64,000 bases of DNA from Polychytrium aggregatum (lineage: Eukaryota > Chytridiomycota > Chytridiomycetes > Polychytriales). The notes below the pieces were generated by a model. The model worked only from the letters and a program-made list of their open reading frames with translations. It had not been told where the DNA came from and did not search any database. Within the stretch, counting starts at the first letter, position 1, and each line of letters opens with the position of its first letter. This document shows, in pieces, positions 22,239 through 49,942 of the stretch. Made by a program: the position numbers and the translations under genes. The stretch covers positions 1-64,000 of the forward strand of contig NW_026516249.1 in the NCBI RefSeq assembly GCF_025602895.1. Reading direction: 5' to 3'.

Positions 22239-25200
22239 TGACCGACAATGTCAGCAATAAAGTCTTTTCCAAACCTCAAAGACCAATTGCTACCGCCCAT
22301 CCCAAGGCCCAACCTGCCCTAACTCCCCGACCCGTACCCATCCCGCAACCCAGCCCCGCCTCGTTCTTCCAGGCCGCCCCCCAGCCCCAGACCATTCGAC
22401 CCGTCCAAGAGCATGCGCCGCTCTCAAACACCTCGACCACCGCCGCTACCACTTGCCCTCGGGCCAAGGTGGACCTCCGTTACCTCATGCACCCACCCAT
22501 CCTCGAGTCCAGCAACCTGCCCATCCACTTCCCAAAGCAGACTTCCCATGCCCCAGTCCCCCCACATGCTCCCCCACCTGGCAGCACGCCCCTCACAGCC
22601 AACACCGCCCCCACCACATGCCCCCCGCATGGTGGTGGCGACACGCCCGACCCCGACTGCGTGCATATGGTTGCCGCTTTGTCAATGATTGCACGCCGCC
22701 AAGACTCCAAGCTGTTCCTTATCCCCATCCAGCTCCAACAAGGTGACCTCGTGGCCCCAACGCTCGCCATGGTCGACAGCGGATGCTCCGCATGCTTGAT
22801 CGATCCCACGTTTGCCAAGGAAGTGGGACTTGCCATCCACACCAAAGACAAGCCACTGGCTGCGGAAGGCATCGACGGACACGCCCTTCCCACGATCACC
22901 GAAGAGACCGAGCCGCTGACGATTGCGGTCGGCGGCCACGAGCAGCCCCTCGTGCTCGACCTCATGCCCAGCCCGCACGCGCCAGTTGTGCTTGGCTTGC
23001 CTTGGCTTCACCAGCACAATCCCACAGTCGACTGGGCGGCCGGGACCGTCGATATCCCGACGGCTCCCATCGTTGTTGCCGCCTCTCACCCAACTGGAGG
23101 AAGCAATCCTCCAGCTACATTGCCGGAGAAGTACGGTGACTTTGCCGATGTGTTCAGTAAGGGAAAGGCAGACCGACTGCCCGACCACCGCCCATACGAT
23201 TGCAGCATCGACCTCGTCCCCGACAAGTCCCCCCCTTTCGGTCCCATTTACAATCTGTCGGTGGAAGAAACGAAAGCACTACGGGAGTACTTGGACGAGA
23301 ATCTTGCGAAGGGATTCATTCGCCCGTCCAAGTCTCCCGCGGCTTCCCCTGTCCTATTCGTTCGGAAGAAAGACGGCACACTGCGCTTGTGTGTTGACTA
23401 CAGAAGCCTGAACAAGATCACAGTTCGGAACCGGTATCCGCTTCCACTGATTCCCGCACTGCTCGAGCGCCTGAGCGGGGCAAAGGTGTTTTCGAAAATC
23501 GACCTGCGCGGTGCGTACAACCTTGTACGCATCCGTGCAGGCGACGAATGGAAAACAGCCTTCCGCACCCCGTTCGGCCTCTTCGAGTACTTAGTGATGC
23601 CCTTTGGGCTCACGAATGCACCCGCCGTGTTTCAGCATTTCCTTAACGATGTGTTCCGTGACCTCCTAGACACCTATGTGGTCGTCTATTTGGATGACAT
23701 TTTGGTGTTCTCGCCATCACAGAAGACACACGATCAACACGTCCGGGAAGTCCTCTCTCGCCTCAGAAGCCACGGGCTCTTCGGCAAGCTCGAAAAGTGT
23801 CACTTCGATTGCCAAGAGGTCGAATTCCTTGGTTATGTCGTATCTACAGGCTGTATCAGCATGGACCCGGCCAAAGTCCAGTCTGTTATCGAATGGAAGC
23901 CTCCCCACTCGGTCAAGGGAGTGCAACGGTTCCTGGGATTTGCAAATTTCTACCGACAATTCATCAACGCATACTCCTCCGTGGCAATCCCGCTCAACGA
24001 ACTTACTCGCAAGGACATCCCCTTTGCGTGGACACCCAAGGCACAGCATGCATTCGACTCACTCAAACAAGCCTTTACGTCCGCACCCGTCCTTGCACAT
24101 CCCAGGATGGATGCCCCATTTGTGGTCGAGACTGATGCGTCCGACTTTGCCATCGGAGCAGTACTCTCGCAGCCGGACGGGGAGGATGTGCTACGCCCCG
24201 TAGCCTTCCACTCCCGAAAGCTGCTGCCCAACGAGAGTCGCTACGATGTGCATGACAAGGAGTTGCTCGCCATCGTGGATGCATTCAAGAGATGGCGGCA
24301 CTTCCTGGTCGGATCGGCACATCGAGTCACGGTCCACACCGACCACAGAAATCTGCAGTATTTCATGACCGCACGGGCGCTCAACGGACGCCAAGCACGA
24401 TGGGCCATGACCCTGGCAAACTTTGACTTTGTCATTACTTTCCGACCTGGCAAGCTCCACACCAAGGCCGACGCCTTGTCTCGCAGGGCGGAGCATGGCT
24501 TTGAGGAGGGAGAAGGCTCCGCCCGGGTCGAACAGCCGCTCATACGACCCGAACAAGTCCTAGCCAGCGCCATCCATCAAGACGAGGCCGACGACGACGA
24601 GAGCGACCTCGACAAGGAGGATGCGCACGCTTGCCCAAATGACCTGGACGATACGCATCCGGATGGTACAGAAGATGCCGACCCTCTCCCAAGTCAGGAC
24701 GACCAGCACCACCCCCCAAGCCCGGAACGCCAGCTTGAGTTACTGCGTCAGTATCACGACAGTCCGCTCGCAGGACATTTCGGGATCTCCAAGACGTACA
24801 AGCTGCTCAGTCGTGACCACAGATGGCCCGGAATGAAGCGTGATGTTGCCGATTACGTGCGCACATGTGATACGTGTGCACGGGCCAAGACTCCAAGACA
24901 CCCTCCAAGTGGCCTCCTGGTACCACTCCCAGTCCCAAATCGGCCTTGGGGCTCAACATCAGTCGACTTCATAACGGACCTACCGCCAGCAAAGGGAATG
25001 GACTCGGTCATGGTCGTCGTGTGTCGCCTGACCAAGATGGCTCACTTCGTACCATGTACCAAAACAACCACTGCTCCACAGGCCGCCTCGCTGTTCATCC
25101 GTGAGGTTGCTCGACTGAATGGGATGCCAGACACGATCGTGTCCGACCGGGGCCCACAATTTGTCTCCCGCTTCTGGAGGCGACTCATGGAACTGCTCGG

Positions 25201-25513
25201 TGCCACGGTCAATCTCTCATCTGCGTTTCACCCGCAGACCAACGGGCAAACCGAGCGGGTGAACCAGATCCTGGAACAGTATCTCCGCTGTTATGTGTCA
25301 TACCAGCAGGATGACTGGTTGGAACTCCTGCCACTTGCAGAGTTTGCGTACAACAACGCAACTCACGAGTCGACAGGAGTGTCCCCATTCTACGCTAATT
25401 ATGGCTTGCACCCTCGTTTCTCAGTCCTCCAGCCACAAGCAACGGTCAATCCCGCCGGGGAGGGGCACGCAAAGCTCCTTGAAGATGTTCGTCAGCGTCT
25501 GACAAAGGTCTTG
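22197..25513 (+). pseudogene. E4 Pol, truncated after the integrase core
   Basis: Entered by -1 frameshift. Order is a proline-rich linker, protease (MVDSGCSACLID near 22770), RT (VDYRSLNKIT near 23395 and YLDDILVFS near 23690), RNase H (ETDASDFAIG near 24130), an acidic linker, integrase zinc finger (HFGISKTYKLLSRDH, CDTCARAK), and DDE core (VDFITDLPPA, VSDRGPQFVSRFW, HPQTNGQTERVNQ). It breaks at 25513 and runs about 29 codons into the E5 LTR before a stop. RT looks intact, but integration in cis should fail. Confidence 0.9.
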
Positions 25514-25814
25514 TGTGACACGATTGAGGATAATCGAGGTATAGCCGTGAGCGAGAGCTTTCTTACGATACCGATTTCATCCAGAACGGATGAGAACTGA
25601 CTGCTGTAGCACCGTGGGAAAGATTGTAGTGTATCGAGGGAGTAGTCCTGGGTTACTGTGTGTGTGTGTGTAGCTGGGGAACGGATAAGGAAATGGTGCG
25701 CGCTCCTGTATGACTCTGGGCGCGTCAACGCGTCAGGCTGCTGGACATATAAGGCCGCCCCCTCGCCCTGCTCTGCTGGAGATCATCTGGAAAAATATAG
25801 TGGCCTTGGCTACA
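25514..25814 (+). repeat. E5 5' LTR
   Basis: 301 bp with a short GT run near 25658 and a TATA-like CATATAAGG near 25745. It differs from the 3' LTR at about four positions by eye. Confidence 0.9.
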
Positions 25815-25860: not shown

Positions 25861-27405
25861 AACGTTCCGATCTCTCCTCCTGTCTGTCTGCCCGAGGCCC
25901 CCGCCGTCTGCCCAACGTTCCGATCTCTCCTGTGAGGCTCTGCCGTGAGCCTGTCTGTCTGCCCAAGGCCCCCGCCGTCTGCCCAACGTTCCGATCTCTC
26001 CTGTGAGGCTCTGCCGTGAGCCTGTCTGTCTGCCCAAGGCCCCCGCCGTCTGCCCAACGTTCCGATCTCTCCTGTGAGGCTCTGCCGTGAGCCTGTCTGT
26101 CTGCCCGAGGCCCCGCCGTCTGCCCAACGCTCCGATCTCTCCTGTGAGGCTCTGCCGTGAGCCTGTCTGTCTGCCCAAGGCCCCCCGCCGTCTGCCCAAC
26201 GTTCCGATCTCTCCTGTGAGGCTCTGCCGTGAGCCTGTCTGTCTGCCCAAGGCCCCGCCGTCTGCCCAACGTTCCGATCTCTCCTGTGAGGCTCTGCCGT
26301 GAGCCTGTCTGTCTGCCCGAGGCCCCGCCGTCTGCCCAACGTTCCGATCTCTCCTGTGAGGCTCTGCCGTGAGCCTGTCTGTCTGCCCAAGGCCCCCGCC
26401 GTCTGCCCAACGTTCCGATCTCTCCTGTGAGGCTCTGCCGTGAGCCTGTCTGTCTGCCCAAGGCCCCCGCCGTCTGCCCAACGTTCCGATCTCTCCTGTG
26501 AGGCTCTGCCGTGAGCCTGTCTGTCTGCCCAAGGCCCCCCGCCGTCTGCCCAACGTTCCGATCTCTCCTGTGAGGCTCTGCCGTGAGCCTGTCTGTCTGC
26601 CCAAGGCCCCGCCGTCTGCCCAACGTTCCGATCTCTCCTGTGAGGCTCTGCCGTGAGCCTGTCTGTCTGCCCAAGGCCCCCGCCGTCTGCCCAACGTTCC
26701 GATCTCTCCTGTGAGGCTCTGCCGTGAGCCTGTCTGTCTGCCCAAGGCCCCCGCCGTCTGCCCAACGTTCCGATCTCTCCTGTGAGGCTCTGCCGTGAGC
26801 CTGTCTGTCTGCCCAAGGCCCCCCGCCGTCTGCCCAACGTTCCGATCTCTCCTGTGAGGCTCTGCCGTGAGCCTGTCTGTCTGCCCAAGGCCCCGCCGTC
26901 TGCCCAACGTTCCGATCTCTCCTGTGAGGCTCTGCCGTGAGCCTGTCTGTCTGCCCAAGGCCCCCGCCGTCTGCCCAACGTTCCGATCTCTCCTGTGAGG
27001 CTCTGCCGTGAGCCTGTCTGTCTGCCCAAGGCCCCCCGCCGTCTGCCCAACGTTCCGATCTCTCCTGTGAGGCTCTGCCGTGAGCCTGTCTGTCTGCCCA
27101 AGGCCCCCGCCGTCTGCCCAACGTTCCGATCTCTCCTGTGAGGCTCTGCCGTGAGCCTGTCTGTCTGCCCAAGGCCCCCGCCGTCTGCCCAACGCTCCGA
27201 TCTCTCCTGTGAGGCTCTGCCGTGAGCCTGTCTGTCTGCCCGAGGCCCCGCCGTCTGCCCAACGCTCCGATCTCTCCTGTGAGGCTCTGCCGTGAGCCTG
27301 TCTGTCTGCCCAAGGCCCCCGCCGTCTGCCCAACGTTCCGATCTCTCCTGTGAGGCTCTGCCGTGAGCCTGTCTGTCTGCCCAAGGCCCCCGCCGTCTGC
27401 CCGAC
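25861..27405 (+). repeat. Minisatellite in the E5 leader, about 21 copies of 70-72 bp
   Basis: The unit begins GTTCCGATCTCTCCTGTGAG. Copies are nearly identical. Length differences come mainly from a C-run of 4, 5 or 6, and a few copies carry GTTCCGAT versus GCTCCGAT or CCCAAGG versus CCCGAGG. The first copy is shortened. The last copy runs into the start of the coding region. The minus strand of the array is open in all three frames, which is a by-product of the repeat. Confidence 0.95.
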
Positions 27406-27439
27406 GCCCGAACTTGCTGGGGAGGCCCTGCCAGTACCC

Positions 27440-30400
27440 ATGACGGAGGAGACAATTACTTTTGAAGACCTTATTGCAGGGGAGTGGAAGCAATTCTGCA
27501 GTGTGGATGGCGACCTCAATCGGCTTGCCATCTCACTCACCCCCGAACAGCAAACCCTGGTCAGAACATTTTCTGCCAATTATCGACTCCGAGGACCCGC
27601 TGCAACGGACGTTCAACACACCCAACGCCAGTGGGAGATCAAGGTTGCTTTCCTCAGAAAGCTGGAGGCTGCGGTGCCGCCTTTCAAAGGCAGCCGCGAG
27701 GCCGGCACTGTGAATACCTTCCTTGTTTCAATGGATCAGGTTTTCTCGTATGCGGAGGACTACTATGTCGGACCAGCCCAGGTCCAGGCTGCCGCGACCC
27801 ACTTCCAAGACAAAGCTCACACATGGTGGTTCTCGCAGGACAACGCTGCCATGAGGTCCTCGTTAGACTCGTGGCAGAGCCTGCGGGACATCATAGTGGC
27901 AACATTCATTCCTGCGGACTCAGCCACAAAGGCTGAACAGGAACTTAAAGCCTTTTGCCAAGCAAAGAAGCTTCGAAGCCTCTCCAAGTATATCGAGCGA
28001 TTCCTGGAGCTCTCCGCAGCCGCAACAAAATTGACCACCTTTTCGAAGACCGGCTACTTCGTGGGCGGCCTTCACGACTCAGTGAGGCCGTATGTCCAGA
28101 TGCTGCCTAACTACGAGACGGAGCTCCGCGAGGACATTCCAGCACTGATCCGAGAGACGCTTCGTCTCGGCAGCATCTGGGACAAACAAGCTGCAACGGC
28201 TTATCAGCCCCCGCCTCCGCCGCCGCTCCCGCAAGTAGTCCCCATGGACATCGATGCTATCCATAGGGGACCAAGAGGTAGTGGCTCGTACCTCTCCTCA
28301 CGAGAGAGAGAGTTCCTTATACGAAACAAAGGGTGTTTCTACTGCCGCAAAGCCAATGCTGGGCATGTAGCCGCCCGTTGCCCGGAGAAGGAGAGGAACA
28401 AGACCCGTCAGAGAATCCCCGTGCGACAAGTCACGGCGACCTACGACCCCTACGAGCAAACGAACGCCTCCCACAGCTACCGATTGGAACCTCCCAATGC
28501 CACCGAGCCAAGACAGTCTCATGTTGGAAGCGATGACTCCCCTCAGTACGTATTCGGACCTGCTGCTCCGGACAGTCGTGACAAGCCTGGACTAACGGGT
28601 TGCCGCTCTCCAGTCAAGGTTGAACAAGTTCAAGGAGAGCAGACCCGTGGCCAGGAAGTCACGAGAAGTCCGCATGGGAGCGCAGATGCCGAGGTACATG
28701 AGGGTGATGTCTACGCTTGCCAAATAAAGACACTACCAAGTTCAATCGACCTGACGAGAGTGGTCGGGAAGCGAAGAGAGCCACCGCACGAAGGAGCAAT
28801 GAACGCCATATCAGAGAGCGCTTGCTTCCACTTCGTGGGTGCTGCTGGGGGACCAACCGGCATTCAAAAGCGCATCCGGTTCCTGCGAGACTCTGGAGCC
28901 AAGGGCAACGTTATCAAGCAAGCCCTAGCCCAGAGTCTAGGATGCAAGATGATCCCCTGCGATATACAGCTACGATTTGCGGACGATCGCACTTCTGTCT
29001 CGACAACAGCCACGGTCATCAGCCTCCGATGTGGATCGTACACGAGGCTCATCAATTGTGTTGTCGCCGACATTAAAGATGACCTCATCCTGGGCAATCC
29101 ATTCGATGAGGAGGTCCGCGTCCTGGATCAGAGGACCCAGGAGGGTCGGACAAGGATCACTTTCGTGGATCGGCGTAACACCCGACATGTTTGGACCAGC
29201 CTGCCAGCCGTGAAGGATCAACGAGTTAGGGCGATCCACATCGAAGCGGTATCCTTCAAGCAGCTCCAGAGAGAACTCAAAGAAGATGAAGTGCAGGTTG
29301 GAGTCGTCTTGGTAAGCCAATCCGAGGTCACCCAGATTAACAGAAACCCGAACGATAAGTCGCTGGCGGAACAGAAGGAGGAATACCTGGCCAAGCTTCC
29401 GCCAGCCATCCGATCTGTCCTGGAGAGATACATGGACGTATTCGAGGACCCCAAAGGTCTGCCCCCGCCTCGGCCGGAAGATCAGCACATCGAGCTGATC
29501 GATTCGAGGAAGCCTCCACCGTACAGACCCATCTTCCACTTGAGTCCCGAGGAGTTGACGGTGCTGAAGGCCAAGCTGGACGAGTTGCTCGAGAAGGGGC
29601 ATATCCGCCCCTCGACATCCAACTACGGTGCTCCGGTACTCTTTGTCAAAAAGGCTGACGGCACATTACGTATGTGTGTGGACTACAGGGCATTGAACGC
29701 CAACACGGTCAAGAACCGCACTCCGCTTCCGTTCATTGCGGAGATGCGGGACCGCTTGGCAAACAAAAGATTCTTCAGCGGACTCGATGTTCGCGACGGG
29801 TTCAACACGGTCCGCATGGATGAAGGCAGCATTGCGAAGACGGCCTTTCGGACAAGATATGGAACATTTGAATACCTAGTAATGCCGATGGGGCTTACCA
29901 ACTCCCCGGCCTGCTTCATGACGATGATGAACCGCATATTTCACGAGTTCTACGACAAGTTTATGGTCGCCTATGTCGACGATGTCCTTGTCTACTCGGA
30001 CACTTTAGAAGAGCATGCAGCCCACCTGGAACGAGTTCTCAAGAAGTTTAAGGAGAACGGCCTCTATGCCAAGTTGATGAAGTGCAGCTTCGCTCAGGAA
30101 TCGGTCCCGTTCTGTGGACATGAGGTGTCCAGACATGGGCTGAGTATCACGAAGGACAAGGCCAACGCTGTCCTGGACTTTGGCCAGCTGTCCTCGATCA
30201 CGGATGTGCAAGCCTTCCTGGGACTCACCAACTGGGTGAAGGACTTCATCCCCGGATACGCCGAGATATGTCTGCCATTGACAGGGCTACTTCCGAAGAA
30301 CACCGGATGGATATGGACCGAACAGGAACAGACCGCGGTAAGGGTGCTTCAGCACCACATATCGTCATACCCGGTCCTGAGATTCTACGACACCCAACTG

Positions 30401-32347
30401 CCGGTCGAGGTCCACTCTGACGCCTCCCGCTATGCGGGGGGTGGGGTGATCTTGCAACGATTCGACGATGGGCTTCACCCCATCCTGTATTGGTCCAGGA
30501 AGTGGACGAACACTGAACGCAACTACTCGACGTACGAGCATGAACTGCTGGCATTGCATGATTTAGTCAAACATGGTCGGCCATATCTGATGGGTTGCCA
30601 GTTCCATGTGGTTACGGACCATAAGGCACTCATCTGGCTCAACACCCAAGCCAATATCAATCGACGCCAGGCCCGGTGGATCCTGGATTTTCAAGATTAT
30701 GACTTCACTATTGAACATGTCCCCGGATCTCGAAACACAATCGCAGATGTACTCAGTCGAGCGCCATGCCACAGGCCCCTCTGCTCCAAGTGTAGGGGGA
30801 AGATTGACTCGGACACAGCTGCAGTCGATGTGAGGCCGGTCACGACCAGTCTCTCTGCCTCTTCCCTCCGTGACGAAGTAGGAGACGCTCTGGGGAACGA
30901 TGAATTGGCAATGACACTGCAGAAGTATCTCGATGGTCAGGATGTAGATGGCCGCTCCAAGGACGCACCACTGGAGCGTCTTACAAGAGTGGATGGCCTG
31001 ATCTTTTACGACCACGATCGACTCTACGTCCCGAAGGTGGAGTCGATACGAACACGGATCCTTCAAGAGCACCACGACGTCATCACTGTGGGCCATGTTG
31101 GACAGCTACGGACGCTCGAAAAGATTTCGCGCCAGTTCTGGTGGCCCACGTTGCGAGCGGATGTGACCCGCTATGTTGCAGCATGCGAGGTGTGCCAGAA
31201 GTCCAAACCCCGCAACCACCTCCTCGACGGCCTGCTGCATCCGTTGCCCATCCCTGAGGAACGATTCAGCTCGGTGTCCATGGACTTTGCCTTTATGCCA
31301 CTGTCGAAGAAAGGCAACGACAAGTGTCTGATCCTGGTGGATCGACTCACCAAGCTGGCACGGTTCGTTCCGTGCACAACCAAGTCCACGGCCGAGGACG
31401 TGGCATTGTTGTTTATTCAATACTGGGTCGTCTCCTTCGGACTCCCGACGGAGCTAATCTCGGACCGAGACTCCCTTTTCACATCGAACTTTTGGATAAA
31501 AGTCCTGACCACGCTTAAGATTTCCCAGAAGCTTACGACGGCCCGGCACCAACAGGCCAATGGCCAAGCTGAAGCAACGGTCAAGGACCTCAAGCAAAGA
31601 CTGGTCCCATTCGCCAACTACAAGGGCGATAATTGGGACGAGGTGGTGCACCTGCTGGAGTTTGGACACAACGACTCGGTGCACACCTCCACCGGATTCT
31701 CCCCATTCTATTTGGCATTCGGGGTACACCCAAGGACGATGCCAGGCAACGAGCATGCCACCGATGATCGAGTGGCAACCTGGAGTCTCCTGGAGGACCT
31801 CGAAGCCATACGAAGGATTGCAACACAACAACTCCAGGAGGCTCAGGATCATCAAACCCGGAGCGGGAACGAGAGAAGACAGGCGGGGGAGGAGCTCAAG
31901 GTTGGAGACATGGTCCTCCTTGAGCGCGAAGGTATCAACTGGGAGGCCCACAAGTTCAGGCCAGACCAAATCATCCCGCGTCGGCTGGGTCCGTTCAAGA
32001 TTACGGAGATCGAAGGACTTAACCACACCCTGGAGCTACCCCCTACACTAAGCCACATACACCCGACATTCCACCGCAAACTCCTGCGGAAGTTTATTGA
32101 GACGCCGGACGACTTCGCTTCAAGAGCGACTTACACAAGACCACCTGCAATCTCGGACGTCGAACCAATATTCAAGGTGGAGAAGTTGGTCAACGACAGA
32201 AAATACCGCAGGAAGCAACAGTACCTGGTACTGTGGGAAGGATATCCCCTTGAAGATGCCACTTGGGAATACGAAGACAACATTGCGGATGATGTGATAG
32301 GGGAATACTGGAGAGAGAAGGAGGTGGGTGTAGGGAGTAGTATGTAG
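27440..32347 (+). CDS. E5 Gag-Pol polyprotein in a single frame
   Basis: About 1635 residues from the ATG at 27440 (MTEETITFEDLIAGEW). The frame is open further up into the last repeat, but no better start is seen. Gag spans about 1-330, with a knuckle at about 300 spaced C-X2-C-X6-H-X4-C, two residues longer than usual. Protease has RDSGAKGNVI near 484. RT has VDYRALNANT and YVDDVLVYS near 843. RNase H has HSDASRYAGG. Integrase has the HHCC finger, SDRDSLFTSNFW and QANGQAEATVK. A C-terminal chromodomain lies near 1575-1630 (FKVEKLVNDRKYRRKQQYLV). No frameshift is needed, unlike E2, E3, E4 and E6. Confidence 0.9.
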   Translation: MTEETITFEDLIAGEWKQFCSVDGDLNRLAISLTPEQQTLVRTFSANYRLRGPAATDVQHTQRQWEIKVAFLRKLEAAVPPFKGSREAGTVNTFLVSMDQVFSYAEDYYVGPAQVQAAATHFQDKAHTWWFSQDNAAMRSSLDSWQSLRDIIVATFIPADSATKAEQELKAFCQAKKLRSLSKYIERFLELSAAATKLTTFSKTGYFVGGLHDSVRPYVQMLPNYETELREDIPALIRETLRLGSIWDKQAATAYQPPPPPPLPQVVPMDIDAIHRGPRGSGSYLSSREREFLIRNKGCFYCRKANAGHVAARCPEKERNKTRQRIPVRQVTATYDPYEQTNASHSYRLEPPNATEPRQSHVGSDDSPQYVFGPAAPDSRDKPGLTGCRSPVKVEQVQGEQTRGQEVTRSPHGSADAEVHEGDVYACQIKTLPSSIDLTRVVGKRREPPHEGAMNAISESACFHFVGAAGGPTGIQKRIRFLRDSGAKGNVIKQALAQSLGCKMIPCDIQLRFADDRTSVSTTATVISLRCGSYTRLINCVVADIKDDLILGNPFDEEVRVLDQRTQEGRTRITFVDRRNTRHVWTSLPAVKDQRVRAIHIEAVSFKQLQRELKEDEVQVGVVLVSQSEVTQINRNPNDKSLAEQKEEYLAKLPPAIRSVLERYMDVFEDPKGLPPPRPEDQHIELIDSRKPPPYRPIFHLSPEELTVLKAKLDELLEKGHIRPSTSNYGAPVLFVKKADGTLRMCVDYRALNANTVKNRTPLPFIAEMRDRLANKRFFSGLDVRDGFNTVRMDEGSIAKTAFRTRYGTFEYLVMPMGLTNSPACFMTMMNRIFHEFYDKFMVAYVDDVLVYSDTLEEHAAHLERVLKKFKENGLYAKLMKCSFAQESVPFCGHEVSRHGLSITKDKANAVLDFGQLSSITDVQAFLGLTNWVKDFIPGYAEICLPLTGLLPKNTGWIWTEQEQTAVRVLQHHISSYPVLRFYDTQLPVEVHSDASRYAGGGVILQRFDDGLHPILYWSRKWTNTERNYSTYEHELLALHDLVKHGRPYLMGCQFHVVTDHKALIWLNTQANINRRQARWILDFQDYDFTIEHVPGSRNTIADVLSRAPCHRPLCSKCRGKIDSDTAAVDVRPVTTSLSASSLRDEVGDALGNDELAMTLQKYLDGQDVDGRSKDAPLERLTRVDGLIFYDHDRLYVPKVESIRTRILQEHHDVITVGHVGQLRTLEKISRQFWWPTLRADVTRYVAACEVCQKSKPRNHLLDGLLHPLPIPEERFSSVSMDFAFMPLSKKGNDKCLILVDRLTKLARFVPCTTKSTAEDVALLFIQYWVVSFGLPTELISDRDSLFTSNFWIKVLTTLKISQKLTTARHQQANGQAEATVKDLKQRLVPFANYKGDNWDEVVHLLEFGHNDSVHTSTGFSPFYLAFGVHPRTMPGNEHATDDRVATWSLLEDLEAIRRIATQQLQEAQDHQTRSGNERRQAGEELKVGDMVLLEREGINWEAHKFRPDQIIPRRLGPFKITEIEGLNHTLELPPTLSHIHPTFHRKLLRKFIETPDDFASRATYTRPPAISDVEPIFKVEKLVNDRKYRRKQQYLVLWEGYPLEDATWEYEDNIADDVIGEYWREKEVGVGSSM

Positions 32348-33522: not shown

Positions 33523-36500
33523 TTAAGAAGGCTTCCTGCGAGGAGCCCTGCGTGTGCTCTTTATTTGGGGCTCCTCGAGGTGTTTACCGTATTTACTCAG
33601 CTCCTCGGGTGCATGGGACAAGTCCTCCAGTGTTTGCCATGTGTTGCCCGAGTGTGGGTAACCAACCCACTTGACATAAAACCGAAGTGACCCATCAGCC
33701 ACTTTCTTGTGCCTCACGATCCTTTCGACTTCATATTCTTGAGTATAGTATTGTCCGAGGTCGTCTTCCAGTGGTGCGTCGTCCGGGACACCTTCGTCGG
33801 CGTCGGGGAACTGTGCTGGACTGCGGGTCGTGTGGCGACGCAGCTTGGACACATGGAAGACAGGATGGAGCTTGCTTCCAGGTGGCAAGTCCAACAGGTA
33901 GTTGAGGGGACTGGGTCGGGCCGCTATCTTGAACGGTCCTCGGTACTTGGGCAACAACTTCTTTGACTGGGCTTCGGGGACCTTGATGTTGTCGGCGTCC
34001 AGGTAGACAAGGTCTCCAACTTCAAAGGAGACATCCTGGTGTCGGCGGTCGTAGTACTTCGCCATCACTTGTTGCGCATCCGTGAGCGCGTCGGCGATCA
34101 TCTTGTGTCGGACTTGATGATCTTTGACAAAGGCACTTGGTTTGGGAGGCAATCCAGCCGTGGACTCGGTCAGTGTCAAGGAGGTGGGAACATCAGGCTG
34201 GAATCCGTAGAGCGCCTCAAAGGGGCTCAAGCCAGTTGTGCTCGACTTGGCGGTGTTGTATGCAAACTCTGCATGACTCAGCTGTATGTCCCAGTCGTCT
34301 TGGCTGGTCGAGGCGTATGTCCTCAGGTATTGCTCGAGGGTGCGGATCGTCCGCTCGGACTGTCCATCCGTTTGTTGGTGGTGCGAGGTTGACATGTTCA
34401 GCTTGGTGCCGAGATGGTCGAACAGACTTGTCCAAAACAAGGAGGTGAATCGGGGGTCTCGATCACTGACGATGGACTTTGGGAGGCCGTGGTGCTTGAA
34501 CACATGCTTGAAGAACAGCAGTGCAAGGTCAGGCGCGGAGCATGTCGTCTGGCACGGCACAAAGTGTGCCATCTTGCTGAACCTGTCGACAAAGACAGCG
34601 ATTGCATCGTGGTCCAACTTGGTCGTCGGTAGATGCGTGATGAGATCCATGGACATGCTGGTCCAGGGGCGGTCGGGAACAGGCAGGGGTTGCAGCAATC
34701 CTTGCTCTCGGGTCGTGCGTGACTTGACCATCTTGCAGGTATGGCAGGACTCGATGTACTTCTCGACGGTGCGCTTCATTCCAGGCCAGTATGCGACTTT
34801 GGCCAGTCGGTCGTATGTCTTCTCGACTCCAAAGTGTCCAGCGAGGGGCGAGTCGTGGACCTCTTGGAGCAACTTGGTCTTCAACGACGGAATGTCCGGC
34901 ACACAGACACGGCTGTCCTTCTTCAGGAGGAGCAGGCCATCACGCACTGTGTACTCGGATGATTCGTCGTCCTTGGGGAGCTTAGACACCTTTCGGAACA
35001 GTTCTCCGAACTGTTTGTCGTTGGCGATGTTGTCTCGGACAACATCCAGCATCGTGTTGTCGACACTGACAGTCGACTCGTACAGTGACGCCAATTGGTA
35101 GTCGGGGCGTCGGGACAGTGCGTCAGGCACCACATTGAGTTTGCCTTTCTGGTATACAACCTCGTAGTTGTACTCGGCGAGGAACTCCATCCATCGCGCT
35201 TGGCGTCGGCTCAGGTTCTTCTTGGTGTCGAGGTAACGCAGTGACTGGTGGTCCGTCACAATCTTGAAGGGCTTGGCGGTACCGTGGAGGTACACTCGGA
35301 ACTTCTGCAGCGCGTAGATGATCGCAAGCTGCTCCTTCTCGTGCACGGGATAGTTGATCTCGTGTTGGGACAGTTTGCGCGACTCGAAGGCAACGGGCCT
35401 TCCCTCCTGCATCAAAACAGCTCCCACCGCAAAGTCGGAGGCGTCGGTGTGCACGGAGACATCCGTGTTCGGGTCGAACACAGCGAGGACAGGAGCGTTC
35501 GTCAAGGCGTGCTTGAGGGTCTCGAACGCTTGGCGTTGTGGGTGGTCCCACACGAAGGGGCACTCTTTGCGGAGTAGGTCTGTGAGTGGACCGGCAGTGC
35601 GCGCCAGATCGGGGATGAATCGGCGGTAGTAGTTGACGAGACCGAGAAACGACTGCACGTCAGAGACGCATGCGAGCGGCGGCCACTCGACCACAGACTT
35701 GACCTTGGCGGGGTCGACTTCGATTCCTCTTCCTGAGACAACGTGTCCCAGGAACGGGACTTGATTCTTGAAGAACTCACACTTGGACAGTTTGGCATAC
35801 AACTTGTGCTCGCGTAGCTTGGCCAGCACGCGGGCGACATGACCTTCATGGGTCGCTTCATCCTTGCTGTACACAAGGATATCATCCAGGTACACGATGA
35901 CAGAGTTGTCGAGCTCTTGGCGGAACACATCGTTCATCAGCTGCATGAACGTGGCAGGTGCGTTCGTCAATCCGAACGGCAGCACTAGGAACTCGTACAG
36001 TCCGTAGCGAGTCCTGAAGGCGGTCTTGTGGACATCATCCTCGTGGATGCGGATCTGATGGTAGCCTGAGCGGAGGTCTATCTTGCTAAAGACCTTTGCT
36101 CCACTCAGACGATCCATCAACTCGTCGATCCTGGGCAACGGGTAGGTGTTCTTGATGGTCTGTTTGTTTAGTGCGCGATAGTCGACGCACATCCTGAGAT
36201 CACCTTCTTTCTTCTTGACAAAGAGCACTGGTGCACCATACGGTGACTGGCTCGGGCGGATGAACCCATGGGCGAGGAGGTCATCCAACTGGCGCTTGAG
36301 TTCGTCCATCTCCGTCAGCGACAGTTGGTACGTCGGTCTTGACGGAGGCGACGAGCCTGGTTCGATGTCGATGCGATGATCGACGGTGCGTTGGGGTGGC
36401 AGGCATTGTGGCAACTGGTCGGGGAATACGTCCTTGTACTCGTCGAGCAGCTTGGTCACCACAGGCGGGGGACCGGGACCGGCTTGGTCGGTGTCGTCGA

Positions 36501-37455
36501 CCTCACGCACGACACAGAGGAACGACGTGTCCTTCTTGATCAGCCTCTTGAATTGCATGGCTGAGAGGAGAGGTGGCATGTTGGGTGAGGCCATGCCCTG
36601 CAGGACAATGTCAGGGCCAACACGGACAGTGCGGCCTTTCCAGTCGACGACTGGAGTCGGCTCGGCACGAGCAAGCCAGCTCATGCCGAGGATGGCATCG
36701 AACTTGGTGTCGATCACTTGGAACAACAGGACAGGATGGTACTTGGGATGGAGGGCCACTCGCAGGACCACTTGGTGTGTGCACTGCTGCACACGATCGT
36801 CTGCAAGCGCCACACTCATCGGCGACTTCTTCTTGGTTGCATGTATGTTGAGCTCCTGGAGCAAGCGTCTGCTGACAAAGTTGCAGCTTGCTCCAGAGTC
36901 CACCATCATTCGGACGGTGTGACCTTGGACGGTGGCAGGGAGGTACAGCAGGGACTCTTCATGGTCCTCCTGCACAGCCTCCTGCACCATGACTTGACTT
37001 GGGGGAACGGGCGACACTTGGTCTTGGTTGGCTTCATCACGGCCACTCGGACATTTTGGATAGGGTTCGGCCATTGCGGGGGCCTGCGGCGTCAGCACGC
37101 CATTGCACACGACGTCCACGGCTTGCGGACACATGTCGGAAGCATCCGACACACACGACTTGACAGGGGTGAGGGCACAGGCGGTCCTGTCCCTCAAGGG
37201 TTCTTGATTTTCTTTTTTGTTTTGGTTTTCAATTTTGGTTTTCTCTTCACGTTCGTGGAGAGGCAGGCGGCTTGCGCCACCATGCACCTCTCGCACGACG
37301 CACAACACTTGGTTTGTTTCTCCTTCGGGGGAGGGGGCGAGGTGAACTTCCTCTGGAGACGCGTGGACTGCATTGAGCAATCCACGGCGTTGGTCTCCTA
37401 CTAGGGCTCCAGAGCCACCTAGTAGGGTCGGCCGTTTCCCGACTTCATGGGGCAC
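33523..37455 (-). CDS. E6 Pol: protease-RT-RNase H-integrase-chromodomain
   Basis: About 1310 residues, entered from gag by frameshift. Protease has [14 protein letters not shown] has [20 protein letters not shown] and YLDDILVYS (near 35885). RNase H has [10 protein letters not shown]. The integrase finger has [20 protein letters not shown] and CHTCKM; the core has [23 protein letters not shown] and [12 protein letters not shown]. The C-terminal chromodomain ([12 protein letters not shown]) is near 33740. All catalytic residues appear present. It lacks the ILDSxxxRGKL-type chromodomain start shared by E1, E2 and E3, so it belongs to a different lineage. Confidence 0.9.
37397..37440 (-). promoter_or_regulatory. 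E6 programmed -1 frameshift signal
   Basis: Minus strand: GGGAAAC (37440-37434), spacer GGCCGAC, then CCTACTAGG (37426-37418) pairing with CCTAGTAGG (37405-37397) as a perfect 9-bp stem with a 12-nt loop. The gag TAG lies in the stem. Pol is open in the -1 frame. Confidence 0.85.
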
Positions 37456-45742: not shown

Positions 45743-46162
45743 TCGATCGCCGCGCGTCATCAGTCGGAATCTTCGAACCTACCTTCCGCCGCCCATCATC
45801 GATTCGAGATGCAGCACAGCTTATTAGGACTACCTACCATATCTTGACCATTGAATACATGTCCACTGCGACTGATCCTTGACTCCTGGCGACAGACCTC
45901 GCTGTCAGGCTTGATAAGGCCTCGTGGGCAAGGCAAGCCATCGTAATTTAGCTCTGGATCATTCCATGACTGAAGATGAGCCATAGTTCAGAGCAGGTCT
46001 CATCAATGGGTATCTGATTGAGTCGTTCTTCAGCAGTTGCTATGCCAGTCGCCGTCGACAGGCTTCTGTTGGACCAAGTGGCTGTCAGTCACGCGTGACA
46101 CTGATCCCATAGATCAATCTTCATGGCCAAGGATCGATCTACGCATCATGACCAGCAATGAT
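45743..46162. other. Intergenic spacer
   Basis: 420 bp between the carrier stop and the Tc1-like element. No feature recognised. Confidence 0.4.
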
Positions 46163-46811
46163 TACAGCGTATCCACCAAAAAACGGGACACCCAGGGTTT
46201 TGACCATTGATCAATATTTTGTTACCCAATACCATCGCGCGCTGGCCATGACCATTCGCCACACAACCACTCTCCAGAGGAAAGTTTCACTCTCACTCTG
46301 CCACACTGCCCTACAGCGAGCAGGTCTCTCACACAAGAGTGCAACACACCTCTACAAGTCCAAGCGACTGGATGAGCGAGTGGCACAGTTCAGGGACCAG
46401 GTCCGCTCCATCGACCCACGACGATTCGTTTTTGTCGATGAGACAGGGATCAGGAAATCCATTTTCCCTCTCTACGGATACTCACCGAAGGGTGCTCCGC
46501 TTCGCCAGCGCAATCACATGAAACACAAGTCCGTCTCGGCTGCATTTGCCATCAACCACTCTGGTGTGCTGCATCGCATGTACATCCCCACATCATTCAA
46601 GACACACTCGATGGTCGAGTTCTTTGAGCGAGCGAGCTTCCCAGACGACTCTGTGATTGTGATGGACAATGTCAGCATGCACAAGACACGGGCTGTCCTG
46701 GACTGCATCGAGCGCCGAGGATGGTCAGTGATCTTCACCCCACCTGCCTCGCCCGACTTCAATCCCATCGAGAACTTCTTTGGGGTTGAGTCCCCACCGA
46801 TTTGGGGTTGA
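46158..46811 (+). pseudogene. Tc1-like DDE transposase, damaged at both ends
   Basis: The catalytic core is readable: FVDETGI (first Asp), VIVMDNVSMHKT (second Asp) and PPASPDFNPIENFF (third acidic residue). Residues before about 50 lack the usual paired helix-turn-helix. The mini-copy at 49800-49925 preserves a piece of it (SVSKSTIHRWR). The frame ends abruptly after PIENFFG in a run of about 21-bp direct repeats. The protein probably cannot bind the termini, so movement would need a complete copy elsewhere. Confidence 0.75.
46163..46190 (+). repeat. Left terminal inverted repeat
   Basis: TACAGCGTATCCACC followed by AAAAAACGGGACA. Confidence 0.7.
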
Positions 46812-46836
46812 GTTCCTCCAATTTGGGGTTGTCCCT
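46779..46836 (+). repeat. Three direct repeats of about 21 bp at the transposase/Fanzor junction
   Basis: TTTGGGGTTGAGT(T/C)CC-type units recur three times. The transposase frame ends inside the second copy. Confidence 0.75.
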
Positions 46837-46944
46837 CCAATCAAGCCGCCATTTTCACGCCCAAATCCCTGGCTTGAACCTCTCGGCGATTTTTGAACAG
46901 GGTCGCTTCCAACCAGCCCGCAAAGACGGGTTCCTGCTCTCGGG

Positions 46945-46950
46945 TATAAA
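46945..46950 (+). promoter_or_regulatory. TATA box upstream of Fanzor
   Basis: TATAAA 130 bp before the Fanzor ATG, in a transposon-internal spacer of about 270 bp. Confidence 0.5.
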
Positions 46951-47079
46951 TGTCCCACCTTCGTCCTGCTGCTTTCTTCCCTCACCTCGCCTTGATCGGA
47001 TCATCGCGCTATTGTACGATAAAAAAAAGTCTCTGCTCTGACCAGTACCACTGGCAGGCACCCAGCATCCTCTGCCCCC

Positions 47080-49443
47080 ATGCCTCCGAAGCGTAAGGGT
47101 ACCGGTAATGGCCAGCCTCGGCCACCCAGGCCCAAGAAAGCCAAGTCACAGTCGGAGCCTGTCTCTGGTTCGTATTCTGATCCCACGCATGCTTGGTCGT
47201 CTGTTGCTCCGTCGCTCACCACCACTGCTTCTGCAGATCCAATGGATGTCGATCCCACCGAGCCTGGTCCCTCATCTGGTCCTGTCAAGCGATGTCCCAA
47301 GTGCGACGGTACCGACCACGAGCGAAGCAACACCAACAGGTGTCCCGAATATCACCCCCTCAAGAGTTCTGTCGTCCCACTCGTGGATGGAAGGTCATCT
47401 GCCCCTCAGTTCAGCTGCTTCAAGCAGACGATGGATGGCTGTTGTCTCAATCCCGCTCTCCGCGACAAGATCCAGGCCACCGTCGAGGCCATGACCCAGA
47501 TCCAGTTCGAGGCATCCAGGCTGCTCAACCTGCACATCCTCCGGTGCATCGAGCAGGATCTTCCCGTCCCCGTCATCTCCAAGTCCACCCCTGCTTTCAT
47601 CCGCCAATGCTTCAAGATCGTCCAGGACGGTGCGCTCTCCCCGACCAGGGACACCAAGAAATACAACGAGCATCTGGTCGCTTCCTTTCGCGACTATCAG
47701 ACCACTCGGCACGCAGACCTGCCTCCGGCCCCTCGTCTGCCTGATGGTGCTCACAGTCAGCTTCTCACACTGGCTGTCAATGCCTATGCCACCAACTGCA
47801 CCACGCACCTCGATCTGGCCTACTGGCGACTCCTTCGCCGCTTCTGCGCTGCCGTCTTCCCAGCCAACAAGCACAAGCACGAAGCCATCGAGGCTTGTCT
47901 CGAGCTCTTCGAGAAACCAGGGCAGACTCCACCCAAGGCCGATCTCGAGTTCCTCTATCCAGACTTTGGCCACGTCCTGGACGAGTTTCGGTACAGCAAC
48001 GACCAGGACCGCTTCCGGGCCCTACATCGCCTCTCACACCATGTGGGAATCCTCGCCCGGGACAAGATGGTCGACAATGTCCACAAGTGGATCGACTGTG
48101 ACATGCCCGCCCTCCGAGTCACCGAGCTGCAGCGCCAGGCCAAGCTGGACGAGCTCACTGCCAGAGGCATTCCCTCCGACGACAAGAGGTTCACCAACGC
48201 CAAGTCTGAGCTCGGCACCACCAAGGCCAAGATCAACAAGCTGGCATCCAGACTCAAGTGGGCCCTCAAGCAGCTCGCTCTGGACACTCCTCCGGCCGTG
48301 TGCACGATGGTCCCTCTGTGCACTGCGAAGGCCAAGTATGTCAAGATTGACACGGCCACTCTTTGGCAACTCCTGGGTCCAAAGAAGCGCCTTGACCTCA
48401 CCAGGGACAAGCTCAAGGAAGAAGGTGATGACGGTGTCAACAACCAGGATCGTCTCTGGCGCAGTTGCTTCAAGCTGCGTAGTTCCCCCTTCCGTGACCG
48501 GGATATCAATCACAAGCTGTTCAACTACGAGATCAGCACCGATGGCATTGGATGCACCATCGGTCTCGTCAAGTTTGTGCGTCGAACCGATCGCACCGAG
48601 ACCATCGAGCCTCCTCCGACTGCCGAGCAGCGCATCCAGGCCATCGGCAACCCAGACCCCAACCGCACCACTTGGATTGGAATTGACCCAGGCGTCGGCT
48701 CCATCTTCACGGCGGTCATCCAAGCACCGGGCCACCAAGACGAGGTGGTCTCATTCTCGAATGGTCACTATCAGCACATGTGTGGCCACAGGTCCGATAC
48801 TAAGTGGCACAATACCAAGAAGAAGCAGCTCAGCATCGAGACCTGGATGTCGACCACCCCCTCGCCCAAGGTGTCGTCCTCGGAGGCTTTCAAGGTCCAT
48901 CTCACCCATGTCCTGCGACCGGAGCTGCGAGTGCAGCTCGACTTCCACCTTGGCAAGAAGGCCCGTCACCATCGCTTCACGGGCCACAAGAGGCGCCAAG
49001 TGGCCGTCGACAGGATGTGCAAGGCCGTCCTGAAGCACGCCCCGATACGGACCGATGTGGTCATCGCCTTTGGCAATGCGTCATGGCGTCAAGGCAAGGG
49101 CTATGCATCCAGCCCTCGGAGGCAGCGGTTTGCTCAGTACTTTGAGCAATTCGAGCACCACCGACGCCGTCCCAATCACCATCATGGAAGCGTCAAGGTG
49201 GCCTCGACGAACGAGTTCAACACCTCGCAGGTGTGCTCCAAGTGCCTGGAGCCAGTTCGGTTGGAAGGACTCGATGCGCCCAGTGTTGCGAATTCCCACT
49301 TTGTCAGGAGCTGCAAGAATCCCAGCTGCCGGACAGTGTGGAATCGCGACGTCAATGCGGCGCGCAACATGATCACAGTATGCAGGTCGATTGTGGAGAT
49401 CGGAGAGCGACCGGCGGTCTTCACTCGGAGGCTGCCAAAGTGA
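47080..49443 (+). CDS. Fanzor RNA-guided DNA endonuclease (eukaryotic TnpB relative)
   Basis: 787 residues, intronless and uninterrupted. The N-terminus (PPKRKG...PKKAK) looks like a nuclear import signal. A CCHC knuckle (CPKCDGTDH...C) lies at about 72-88. The RuvC-like fold is in the last third: WIGIDPGVGSIF with Asp536; FGNASW at 664-669 where prokaryotic TnpB has Glu; TNEFNTSQVCSKC with Glu712 and Cys719/722; CKNPSC (745/750); WNRDVNAARNM with Asp757. The Glu712-TSxxCxxC pattern and the loss of the canonical Glu are the published hallmarks of Fanzors. Its place inside a Tc1-like element suggests the Fanzor1 group. The expected role is guide-directed cutting that favours element retention. 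Confidence 0.85.
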   Translation: MPPKRKGTGNGQPRPPRPKKAKSQSEPVSGSYSDPTHAWSSVAPSLTTTASADPMDVDPTEPGPSSGPVKRCPKCDGTDHERSNTNRCPEYHPLKSSVVPLVDGRSSAPQFSCFKQTMDGCCLNPALRDKIQATVEAMTQIQFEASRLLNLHILRCIEQDLPVPVISKSTPAFIRQCFKIVQDGALSPTRDTKKYNEHLVASFRDYQTTRHADLPPAPRLPDGAHSQLLTLAVNAYATNCTTHLDLAYWRLLRRFCAAVFPANKHKHEAIEACLELFEKPGQTPPKADLEFLYPDFGHVLDEFRYSNDQDRFRALHRLSHHVGILARDKMVDNVHKWIDCDMPALRVTELQRQAKLDELTARGIPSDDKRFTNAKSELGTTKAKINKLASRLKWALKQLALDTPPAVCTMVPLCTAKAKYVKIDTATLWQLLGPKKRLDLTRDKLKEEGDDGVNNQDRLWRSCFKLRSSPFRDRDINHKLFNYEISTDGIGCTIGLVKFVRRTDRTETIEPPPTAEQRIQAIGNPDPNRTTWIGIDPGVGSIFTAVIQAPGHQDEVVSFSNGHYQHMCGHRSDTKWHNTKKKQLSIETWMSTTPSPKVSSSEAFKVHLTHVLRPELRVQLDFHLGKKARHHRFTGHKRRQVAVDRMCKAVLKHAPIRTDVVIAFGNASWRQGKGYASSPRRQRFAQYFEQFEHHRRRPNHHHGSVKVASTNEFNTSQVCSKCLEPVRLEGLDAPSVANSHFVRSCKNPSCRTVWNRDVNAARNMITVCRSIVEIGERPAVFTRRLPK

Positions 49444-49543
49444 TCTGTTTTATTTCTTGTGGCTTTGCTTGACGCAAGCACATCGCATACTACAGGTTCA
49501 TGGAAACGGCTATATTGTCCCGTTTTTTTCTGAATAAAGTGTA
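49444..49543 (+). ncRNA. Candidate omega (guide) RNA region
   Basis: TnpB and Fanzor guide RNAs come from the 3' end of the gene up to the right end of the element. Here 73 nt lie between stop and TIR. A hairpin TGCTTG-ACG-CAAGCA sits at 49466-49480. The inverted mini-copy keeps this hairpin despite two changes that turn Watson-Crick pairs into G-U pairs. The boundaries may extend into the ORF, which is similarly conserved from 49380. No RNA data are available. Confidence 0.4.
49516..49543 (-). repeat. Right terminal inverted repeat
   Basis: On the minus strand TACACTTTATTCAGA is followed by AAAAAACGGGACA. An AATAAA poly(A) signal (49533-49538, plus) overlaps it. Confidence 0.7.
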
Positions 49544-49624
49544 CGATGGATTGCTGCACACCAACCTCGATTTCATTTTGACCGCTCTTGCGCAGTGGCC
49601 AGACTGGTGATCGAGTAGCCACGG

Positions 49625-49942
49625 TATACTTTATTCAGAAATAACGGGACACCACACCCGCTTTCATCAAGATGTAGTCTGTGATGAGCTCGCGTCAAAC
49701 AAAGCCATGAGAAATAGAACAGATCACTATGACAGCCTCCAAGTGAAGGCTACCGGTCGCTCTCCGTCTTCACAATCGACCTACACACTGGTATCGGAGC
49801 GCCAGCGGTGAATGGTGCTCTTGGACACACTGAATGACGGTGTAGCACCGCAACGCAGAATGGTCATAGCCAGCGTGGGTAACAAAATATTCGGCCCATG
49901 ACCAAATCACCAGGGTGACCCGATTGACTGTTAACAATGCTA
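49625..49942 (-). mobile_element. MITE-like deletion derivative of the Fanzor element, inverted
   Basis: It starts with a TIR (TATACTTTATTCAG at 49625, ACGGGACA to 49651). On the minus strand it carries, from its other end, a transposase helix-turn-helix fragment and then the last ~60 nt of Fanzor coding DNA plus the whole 3' region. The far TIR is degraded (near 49916-49942). It is about 80 per cent identical by eye to 49380-49543. Confidence 0.7.

What the first reader, a model, noticed from the sequence alone, without database searches (positions are those of the whole stretch)
46163..49543. Intact Fanzor nuclease carried by a Tc1/mariner-like element with definable ends
A 787-residue Fanzor with all RuvC-like catalytic and zinc-binding motifs lies between TA-flanked imperfect 28-bp inverted repeats and downstream of a DDE transposase core. 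Seen directly: open frame, motifs, inverted termini. Established: Fanzors are eukaryotic TnpB relatives with RNA-guided DNA cutting. Inference: this copy is functional and moves, or moved, with the Tc1-like element.
Basis: partly seen in the sequence, partly recalled or inferred. Interest (0 to 1): 0.95.

Follow-up and report, generated by a model that had tools for sequence, protein, structure and literature searches.

The report
Transposon-borne Fanzor with homing-like insertion scars
A jumping gene in an unnamed eukaryote carries an intact-looking RNA-guided DNA cutter (a Fanzor), and the way its many relatives sit in the genome suggests that the cutter helps the jumping gene keep or copy itself into its sites, a role that has been an open question for Fanzors.

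Summary
46163-49543 is one copy of a Tc1-like (DD34E) element with TA flanks and an open 787-aa Fanzor1 gene; the genome holds 257 matching right ends. This copy's transposase is a remnant: 244 bp (DNA-binding part) and the part after the catalytic E are missing. Complete copies are ~3.74 kb. Of 40 copies read, Fanzor is open in 27 and the 310-aa transposase in 8; Fanzor pN/pS is 0.32.

(2) A sister family with nearly the same transposase but a 40%-identical Fanzor and another right end has T at 10 of 21 sites. (3) In 7 of 66 copies the left end's first bases are replaced by 5-9 target bases that follow the TA, without footprint: the scar expected if an uninserted site was cut downstream of the TAM and repaired onto the element.

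Best reading: the Fanzor acts as a TnpB-like homing/retention nuclease. This is inference; no activity was measured. Fanzor in Tc1/mariner elements is known since 2013.

The parts
46163..49543 (+). whole element, both TA duplications included (3381 bp); deletion derivative of a ~3.74 kb Tc1-like element
46162..46164 (+). T-TA: proposed TAM (T is host, TA is the target duplication)
   Evidence: T 5' of the left TA in 63 of 66 independent insertions
46163..46190 (+). left terminal inverted repeat; first 6 bp after TA (CAGCGT here, CAGGCA/G in 47 of 66) are the variable, capture-prone bases
46248..46811 (+). transposase remnant, 187 aa from the family start codon; DD34E residues D 46437, D 46665, E 46770 kept
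   Evidence: DDE_3 3.9e-22
46268..46269 (+). approximate point of a 244-bp deletion (helix-turn-helix region) relative to complete copies
   Evidence: same junction region in L011-L016, L019 and L043
46788..46824 (+). stretch where complete copies have about 105 bp more (transposase end); replaced here by GGGGTTGAGT-type short repeats
46945..46950 (+). TATAAA, possible promoter of the Fanzor gene (by eye, untested)
47080..49443 (+). Fanzor1 gene, 787 aa, no intron needed
47293..47343 (+). N-terminal C-x2-C-x4-H-x7-C zinc-knuckle-like motif (C72, C75, H80, C88), conserved in family B
48685..48687 (+). catalytic D536 (IDPG)
49213..49215 (+). catalytic E712 (NEFNTS), aligned with SpuFz1 E541
49234..49329 (+). 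zinc ribbon C719, C722, C745, C750
49348..49350 (+). catalytic D757 (NRD), aligned with SpuFz1 D606
49444..49541 (+). putative omega-RNA scaffold: least diverged stretch of the family (0.027; 0.018 in its second half)
   Evidence: fold alone not significant
49516..49543 (-). right terminal inverted repeat
49544..49563 (+). predicted guide (right-flank host sequence after TA)
   Evidence: inference from TnpB/Fanzor architecture
49625..49933 (-). neighbouring 309-bp internally deleted relative (ghost/MITE-like), also inserted at T-TA
   Evidence: 82% over 168 bp to the right part

Best explanation
This is a transposase-dead copy of a Tc1-like, Fanzor1-bearing transposon. The transposase (supplied by complete copies) cuts and pastes the element into TA. 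The Fanzor gene plus the conserved 3' non-coding stretch form a homing/retention module: the right end is transcribed into a scaffold whose guide is the host sequence right of the insertion; Fanzor recognises the uninserted site as T-TA (TAM) followed by that guide and cuts downstream of the TAM; repair from the element-bearing homologue or sister copies the element in. Insertions at TTA are thereby kept, others are lost, and now and then the uncut tail between TAM and break is retained, leaving 5-9 target bases in place of the element's first bases. Shown by sequence: element anatomy, copy number, one-sided TTA, module swap, left-end captures, purifying selection. Inferred: that Fanzor cutting is the cause.
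For: Fanzor1 identity: PF07282; two-sequence profile hits SpuFz1 (8gkh, E 7.9e-4) and GtFz1 (9cer, 0.029) first in the PDB; D536/E712/D757 fall on SpuFz1 D383/E541/D606 by alignment and by the 65-residue E-D spacing of SpuFz1. One-sided site: T 63/66 before the left TA against background 0.19 and 0.14; A after the right TA 12/65. In the 30 loci found by whole-element similarity alone it is 28/30. T is host sequence: 6 uninserted paralogues of the L023 site read TTA, and the joined flanks of L045 encode an uninterrupted P450 stretch. Module swap: family B (L131) shares 96% of 1015 bp of left end and transposase but its Fanzor is 40% identical and its right end differs; T at 10/21, Fisher 3e-6 against A. 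Captures: 7/66 loci with 5-9 target bases; for the 19 non-canonical left ends the summed match to the own target is 61, maximum 33 in 100000 shuffles; all 7 have T-TA once, without footprint. Fanzor pN/pS 0.32 overall, 0.35 and 0.30 in the two transposase-deleted classes; Fanzor open in 19 of 32 copies with broken transposase. 3' non-coding stretch least diverged. Precedents: SpuFz1 TAM CATA ends in TA and CA is conserved left of Spu-1 elements; Chlamydomonas Fanzor-Helitrons have 7-19 bp duplications downstream of TTTT, Fanzor-less relatives hardly any.
Against: No RNA, protein, cleavage or TAM assay. Family B also exceeds background (10/21, p 0.003; 5/9 for full-length copies, p 0.016), so the shared transposase may itself favour T; in the strictest comparison (28/30 against 5/9) p is only 0.018. 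Two of the 21 B sites (L142, L145) are typed on pieces of only 82-90% identity. Captures were 0 of 10 in B copies with both flanks, which at that n says nothing. One capture copy (L012) has a broken Fanzor. L027's capture lies in a flank that resembles another element end. Microhomology at captures is only marginal (p 0.04-0.10). Omega-RNA fold z -1.5. No empty allele was found, so homing itself is not seen. pN/pS may be blurred by conversion or assembly.
Confidence: 0.6

Rival explanations
1. The transposase itself prefers TTA on one side; the Fanzor is a passenger, and A and B differ because the right-end sequence changes how the transpososome meets the target.
For: Family B also has more T than background (10/21). 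W at -2 is enriched in A too (51/66), which looks like a general transposase preference.
Against: Left ends and transposase are nearly the same in A and B, yet T differs (63/66 against 10/21; 28/30 against 5/9 in the similarity-found sets). A right-end difference would have to act on the base beside the left end. It does not explain the captured target bases. Purifying selection on Fanzor argues against a pure passenger.
Confidence: 0.22
2. The left-end captures come from the transposition reaction or ordinary gap repair (wider stagger, slippage), not from Fanzor cutting.
For: Only 7 of 66 copies; inherited variants of the first 6 bp (CAGCGT, CGGGCG) show that these bases are dispensable; microhomology weak.
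Against: A 2-bp TA stagger cannot duplicate 7-11 bp. An excision gap would leave a footprint or a second TA; none is seen in 7 of 7. In the 30 similarity-found loci, captures are 4 left and, by eye, none right; the other 36 loci were picked by a pattern that includes the right terminus, so they cannot show right captures.
Confidence: 0.25
3. Fanzor has lost its role; pN/pS below 1 reflects ancestral selection or sequence mixing among copies.
For: 13 of 40 copies have a broken Fanzor; singletons have pN/pS 0.53, less constrained than shared variants (0.30).
Against: Shared variants in transposase-deleted classes remain constrained (0.30-0.35), and all 8 copies with a complete transposase also have an open Fanzor.
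Confidence: 0.15

Closest known systems
Fanzor1-bearing Tc/mariner elements (PGv-1, PUl-1, PUl-4; Bao and Jurka 2013, PMC3627910; passages and section 8 read)
   Same: Mariner-type transposase or TIRs plus Fanzor1, TA duplications, Fanzor-only copies with the same ends
   Different: Those authors did not know RNA-guided cutting and proposed a methyltransferase; in what I read no TAM-like one-sided site, no Fanzor swap on one transposase and no left-end captures are given for mariner elements
Spu-1 elements / SpuFz1 of Spizellomyces punctatus (Saito 2023, PMC10432273; passages read)
   Same: Fanzor1, short inverted repeats, conserved CA beside TA at the left, TAM CATA ending in TA, ghost copies keeping ends and omega-RNA
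   Different: No transposase was found within Spu-1; here complete copies carry it. TAM here would be TTA. The paper says the biological role of Fanzors is unknown
CRe-1/2/3 Fanzor-Helitrons of Chlamydomonas (PMC3627910 section 8)
   Same: Extra target-site duplications (7-19 bp) just downstream of a T-rich motif, rare in Fanzor-less relatives
   Different: Helitron, often 5' truncated; the cause was left open there. Here a cut-and-paste Tc1-like element with 5-9 bp captures
[quoted passage not shown] passages of PMC11870625)
   Same: Guide from the flank, TAM at the other side, cut of the empty site, copy-in by repair
   Different: In IS200/605 the TAM is also the transposase's insertion motif; here the transposase needs only TA and the extra T appears to be imposed by Fanzor

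Membership tests
Fanzor1 | TNB/OrfB zinc ribbon with C4 zinc finger and RD motif | tested here: met
   PF07282 6.4e-9; C719, C722, C745, C750, RD 756-757
Fanzor1 | DPG RuvC-I signature and shifted catalytic E | tested here: met
   D536 in IDPG; E712 aligned with SpuFz1 E541
Fanzor1 | closest solved relatives are Fanzor1, not Fanzor2 or TnpB | tested here: met
   Profile of 2 sequences: SpuFz1 7.9e-4, GtFz1 0.029 rank first of 7. Single-sequence search alone was not significant: best LaTranC at 0.65
Fanzor1 | Fanzor three-domain fold | tested here: inconclusive
   Single-sequence AlphaFold2 model mean pLDDT 38; no fold search made
Fanzor1 | omega-RNA from the right end and RNA-guided cutting | not testable with these tools
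   Only indirect: 3' stretch conserved, fold z -1.5
Tc1/mariner (DD34E, Tc1-like) | DDE triad with 34 residues between second D and E | tested here: met
   DDE_3 3.9e-22; spacing 34
Tc1/mariner (DD34E, Tc1-like) | N-terminal helix-turn-helix | tested here: met
   Family: HTH_23 0.0015, below its cut-off, in the complete transposase of L131. Window copy: region deleted
Tc1/mariner (DD34E, Tc1-like) | terminal inverted repeats and TA duplication | tested here: met
   22/28; right TA in 63 of 66
homing/retention nuclease (TnpB-like) | insertions confined to TAM-bearing sites on the side opposite the guide | tested here: met
   T-TA 63/66; B 10/21
homing/retention nuclease (TnpB-like) | uninserted allele converted to inserted | tested here: inconclusive
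   No empty allele among 29 loci; 19 of 29 have a second contig with the same flank, none joined; captures are indirect
homing/retention nuclease (TnpB-like) | guide-dependent cutting of the empty site | not testable with these tools
   needs biochemistry

The most novel reading that the evidence does not exclude
Fanzor is a homing factor of a cut-and-paste transposon in a eukaryote: by cutting uninserted TTA-plus-guide sites it decides, after transposition, which insertions persist; exchanging the Fanzor/right-end module on the same transposase changes the site spectrum of the surviving copies; and 5-9 bp left-end captures are the molecular scars of its cuts. The 7-19 bp duplications of Chlamydomonas Fanzor-Helitrons would be the same scar.
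Probability: 0.45. Interest if true: 0.85.

Novelty: new variant of a known kind. Interest (0 to 1): 0.66.

Why it matters
What Fanzors do for their hosts or transposons was stated as unknown in 2023. This genome offers a natural experiment: one transposase with two different Fanzor/right-end modules, more than 200 copies, ghost copies, and scars at the left end that can be predicted from TAM and cut position. It yields a specific TAM prediction (TTA), a guide start (after the right TA) and an explanation for the odd duplications of Fanzor-Helitrons, all open to ordinary assays.

Tried and rejected
Protein relatives in the 5.8-billion collection: none at E <= 1e-5 among 7952 candidates, none at E <= 1 among 8000 with the A/B profile. 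Single-sequence AlphaFold2: mean pLDDT 38, not used for fold search. RNA fold of the 3' stretch: z -1.5; neighbour relative -0.04; family B -1.1 and -1.7: no claim made. Empty alleles: the first joined-flank query was swamped by the repeat in L023's flank; the repeats without it found none at allele identity (40 of 55 and 40 of 54 candidates scored), one 84%-identical uninserted paralogue of the L028 site on C408. The idea that T belongs to the element rather than the target was rejected. A mirrored palindromic target was rejected (A after right TA 12/65). Dropped rows: L026, L046 (ends not readable); 11 of 77 as same-flank duplicates; for family B: L160/L161 and L177 (type unknown), L164, L168, L169 (left flank is an inverted B fragment), L166 (no TA), L143 and L155 (family A by sequence, not added to the 66), L148, L157, L165 (duplicates). 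Species: not identified.
Full report
OBSERVATION. The ORF 47080-49443 is open over 787 codons and matches PF07282 (Cas12f1-like TNB, 6.4e-9); the ORF before it matches DDE_3 (3.9e-22). The stretch 46163-49543 begins and ends with TA and has imperfect terminal inverted repeats, 22 of 28 identical. A search of the window's own assembly (64.68 Mb, 418 contigs, unnamed) scored 40 near-full copies out of 1256 first-look candidates. Pattern searches with up to 3 mismatches count 257 right ends and 500 left-end cores, reversed controls 0. Left ends outnumber right ends because related families share the left end (below) and because the right-end pattern is longer.

ANATOMY. Aligned with complete copies (about 3.74 kb, e.g. 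L032), the window copy lacks 244 bp of the transposase 5' part and about 105 bp after the catalytic E, where GGGGTTGAGT-type repeats stand instead. Complete copies encode 310 aa. The triad D, D, E is kept with 34 residues between second D and E (Tc1-like DD34E), but the window copy cannot make a complete transposase. The 244-bp deletion junction recurs in L011, L012, L015 and L016 besides the window copy (and their same-flank partners, and L043), the C-terminal change in 16 of 32 independent loci (classes G2 and G3), so deleted copies were multiplied in trans. Of the 40 copies read, 8 have the 310-aa transposase frame and 27 an open Fanzor; 19 of the 32 copies without a full transposase frame have an open Fanzor, and all 8 with a full frame do. 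Counting independent loci only, Fanzor is open in 21 of 32.

FANZOR IDENTITY. A profile of the window Fanzor and the family B Fanzor finds SpuFz1 (8gkh, 7.9e-4) and Guillardia theta Fanzor1 (9cer, 0.029) first in the PDB; the single sequence alone found nothing significant (best 0.65). The alignment puts E712 on SpuFz1 E541 and D757 on D606: the two SpuFz1 residues are 65 apart in the aligned chain, as E541 and D606 are (residue numbers from passages of PMC10432273 and PMC11423790). D536 stands in the DPG signature named for Fanzors in PMC10711439 (passages). All three and the four zinc cysteines are shared with family B. The AlphaFold2 model from one sequence was useless (mean pLDDT 38).

SELECTION. 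Pooled pN/pS of Fanzor over 21 intact independent loci is 0.32, 0.24 in residues 521-787. By class: complete-type 0.34 (16 loci), C-terminally deleted transposase 0.35 (11), doubly deleted 0.30 (5). Singletons give 0.53, shared variants 0.30, so decay after insertion is weaker constrained than what was propagated. The transposase of the 8 full copies gives 0.23. A caution: copies with the same flanks often differ inside (below), so lineages may be mixed.

INSERTION SITES. From 79 copies (40, 39 more by short fetches), 77 gave both junctions and 66 remain after removing same-flank duplicates. The base before the left TA is T in 63, A in 3. The base after the right TA is A in 12 of 65. Background for T before TA is 0.191 in the host part of the window and 0.136 in the flanks. 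For the 30 loci found by whole-element similarity alone the figure is 28 of 30, for the 36 found through end patterns 35 of 36. Genome-wide, exact left cores with six free bases count 251 after TTA and 33 after VTA (rows, duplicates and families not separated). The T is part of the target: the uninserted paralogues of the L023 site (36 of the 40 listed matches run across the junction) include 6 places within 3 mismatches that all read TTA, and the joined flanks of L045 encode an unbroken P450 stretch (PF00067, 6.5e-12).

SISTER FAMILY. L131 has 96% identity over 1015 bp of left end and transposase, but its 855-aa Fanzor is 40% identical and its right end is another sequence. Sites of copies typed as B by a B right end, B Fanzor sequence or the whole-element search have T before the left TA in 10 of 21 (L142 and L145 are typed less surely, one T, one not). 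Against A: p 3e-6. Restricted to copies found by whole-element similarity: 5 of 9 against 28 of 30, p 0.018. B exceeds background too (p 0.003 for 10/21; p 0.016 for 5/9), so the transposase may add some T preference of its own. The near-absolute T of A thus goes with its Fanzor and right end, not with the left end beside which it lies.

LEFT-END CAPTURES. The six bases after the left TA are CAGGCA or CAGGCG in 47 of 66. In 7 loci (L012, L027, L031, L045, L073, L075, L105) they are replaced by 5-9 bases identical to the host bases after the right TA; one more (L089, 4 bases) is ambiguous. For all 19 non-canonical loci the summed common prefix with the own target is 61; the maximum of 100000 shuffles is 33. 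The longest match among the 47 canonical loci is 3. Each of the 7 has T-TA once and no footprint, so the substrate was an uninserted site. A TA-stagger insertion cannot give this. A break some 10-20 bp downstream of TTA (published Fanzors cut 9-21 nt from the TAM; passages), followed by repair onto the element before the tail is removed, can. Microhomology between tail and element is only marginal (p 0.04-0.10). Bao and Jurka describe 7-19 bp duplications downstream of TTTT for Chlamydomonas Fanzor-Helitrons in about 70, 57 and 10% of three families, and 1 in 200 for a Fanzor-less relative, and leave the cause open (section 8 read); the present data suggest one cause.

3' STRETCH. Mean pairwise divergence over 32 copies is 0.027 for the 98-99 bases between stop codon and right end (0.018 for the second half), 0.044 for the intergenic stretch, 0.065 for the first 60 bp; Fanzor pS is 0.095. 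This is where the omega-RNA lies in Spu-1 (passages). The predicted fold is not significant (z -1.5). The TA would be both end of the TAM and end of the scaffold, so the guide would start at 49544; compare IS607 TnpB, where a fixed flanking base belongs to the scaffold (passage).

ALLELES. Queries of joined flanks found no uninserted allele for 29 loci; for 19 of the 29 a second contig carries the same flank, with the two halves apart or one half listed. Two second copies (C172 for L042, C368 for L018) hold only about 310 bp between the flanks: internally deleted versions in place. This fits efficient spread to homozygosity but also simple age, so I do not count it as support. In 6 of 7 same-flank pairs the element interiors differ by 25-130 substitutions while flanks differ by 0-3, except the left flank of L023/L024, a repeat, with 45: conversion between copies or assembly error, unresolved.

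LITERATURE. Searches of the held library listed no paper on Fanzor acting as a homing factor for a DNA transposon in a eukaryote; subscription papers are not held. Fanzor in Tc/mariner elements, TAM-like bases left of Spu-1 and TnpB retention are known. New, as far as these searches show, are the swap test, the one-sided survival pattern on a TA-only transposase and the capture scars in a Tc1-like element.

VERDICT. Element and Fanzor identity: about 0.97. Homing/retention by Fanzor as cause of TTA and captures: 0.6. The window copy is one unremarkable member of the family; the family is what is interesting.

Noticed in passing
L131 and (e.g. C135:236709-239460, C373:227629-230380): A third family: Fanzor 86-89% like family B, but only about 52 bp of the B transposase end is shared, so a Fanzor/right-end module seems to sit behind another left part. 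Over 20 copies listed.
   Followed up: partly
L011/L014, L012/L013, L016/L019, L023/L024, L030/L036, L031/L033: Contigs with the same flanks carry elements that differ inside by 25-130 substitutions, ends alike: ectopic conversion or polishing error.
   Followed up: partly
C172:8468-8896 and C368:84182-84619: Second copies of the L042 and L018 sites hold only ~310 bp between the flanks: in-place internal deletion, as after incomplete gap repair.
   Followed up: no
L023/L024 (C90, C25): Family A copy lies about 250 bp beyond the right end of family C elements, inside a repeat with many uninserted paralogues.
   Followed up: partly
46788-46840 and the same place in other copies: Variable GGGGTTGAGTCCCC-type short repeats replace the transposase 3' end; they differ in number between copies.
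   Followed up: no
window 9785-13807, 22469-25600, 27350-32347, 33523-37455: Long ORFs that by eye look like Ty3/gypsy gag-pol with chromodomain-like ends; no profile search made.
   Followed up: no
L045 flanks (C8): The insertion interrupts a cytochrome P450 gene.
   Followed up: no
47293-47343: Zinc-knuckle-like motif at the Fanzor N-terminus, one in A and two in B.
   Followed up: no
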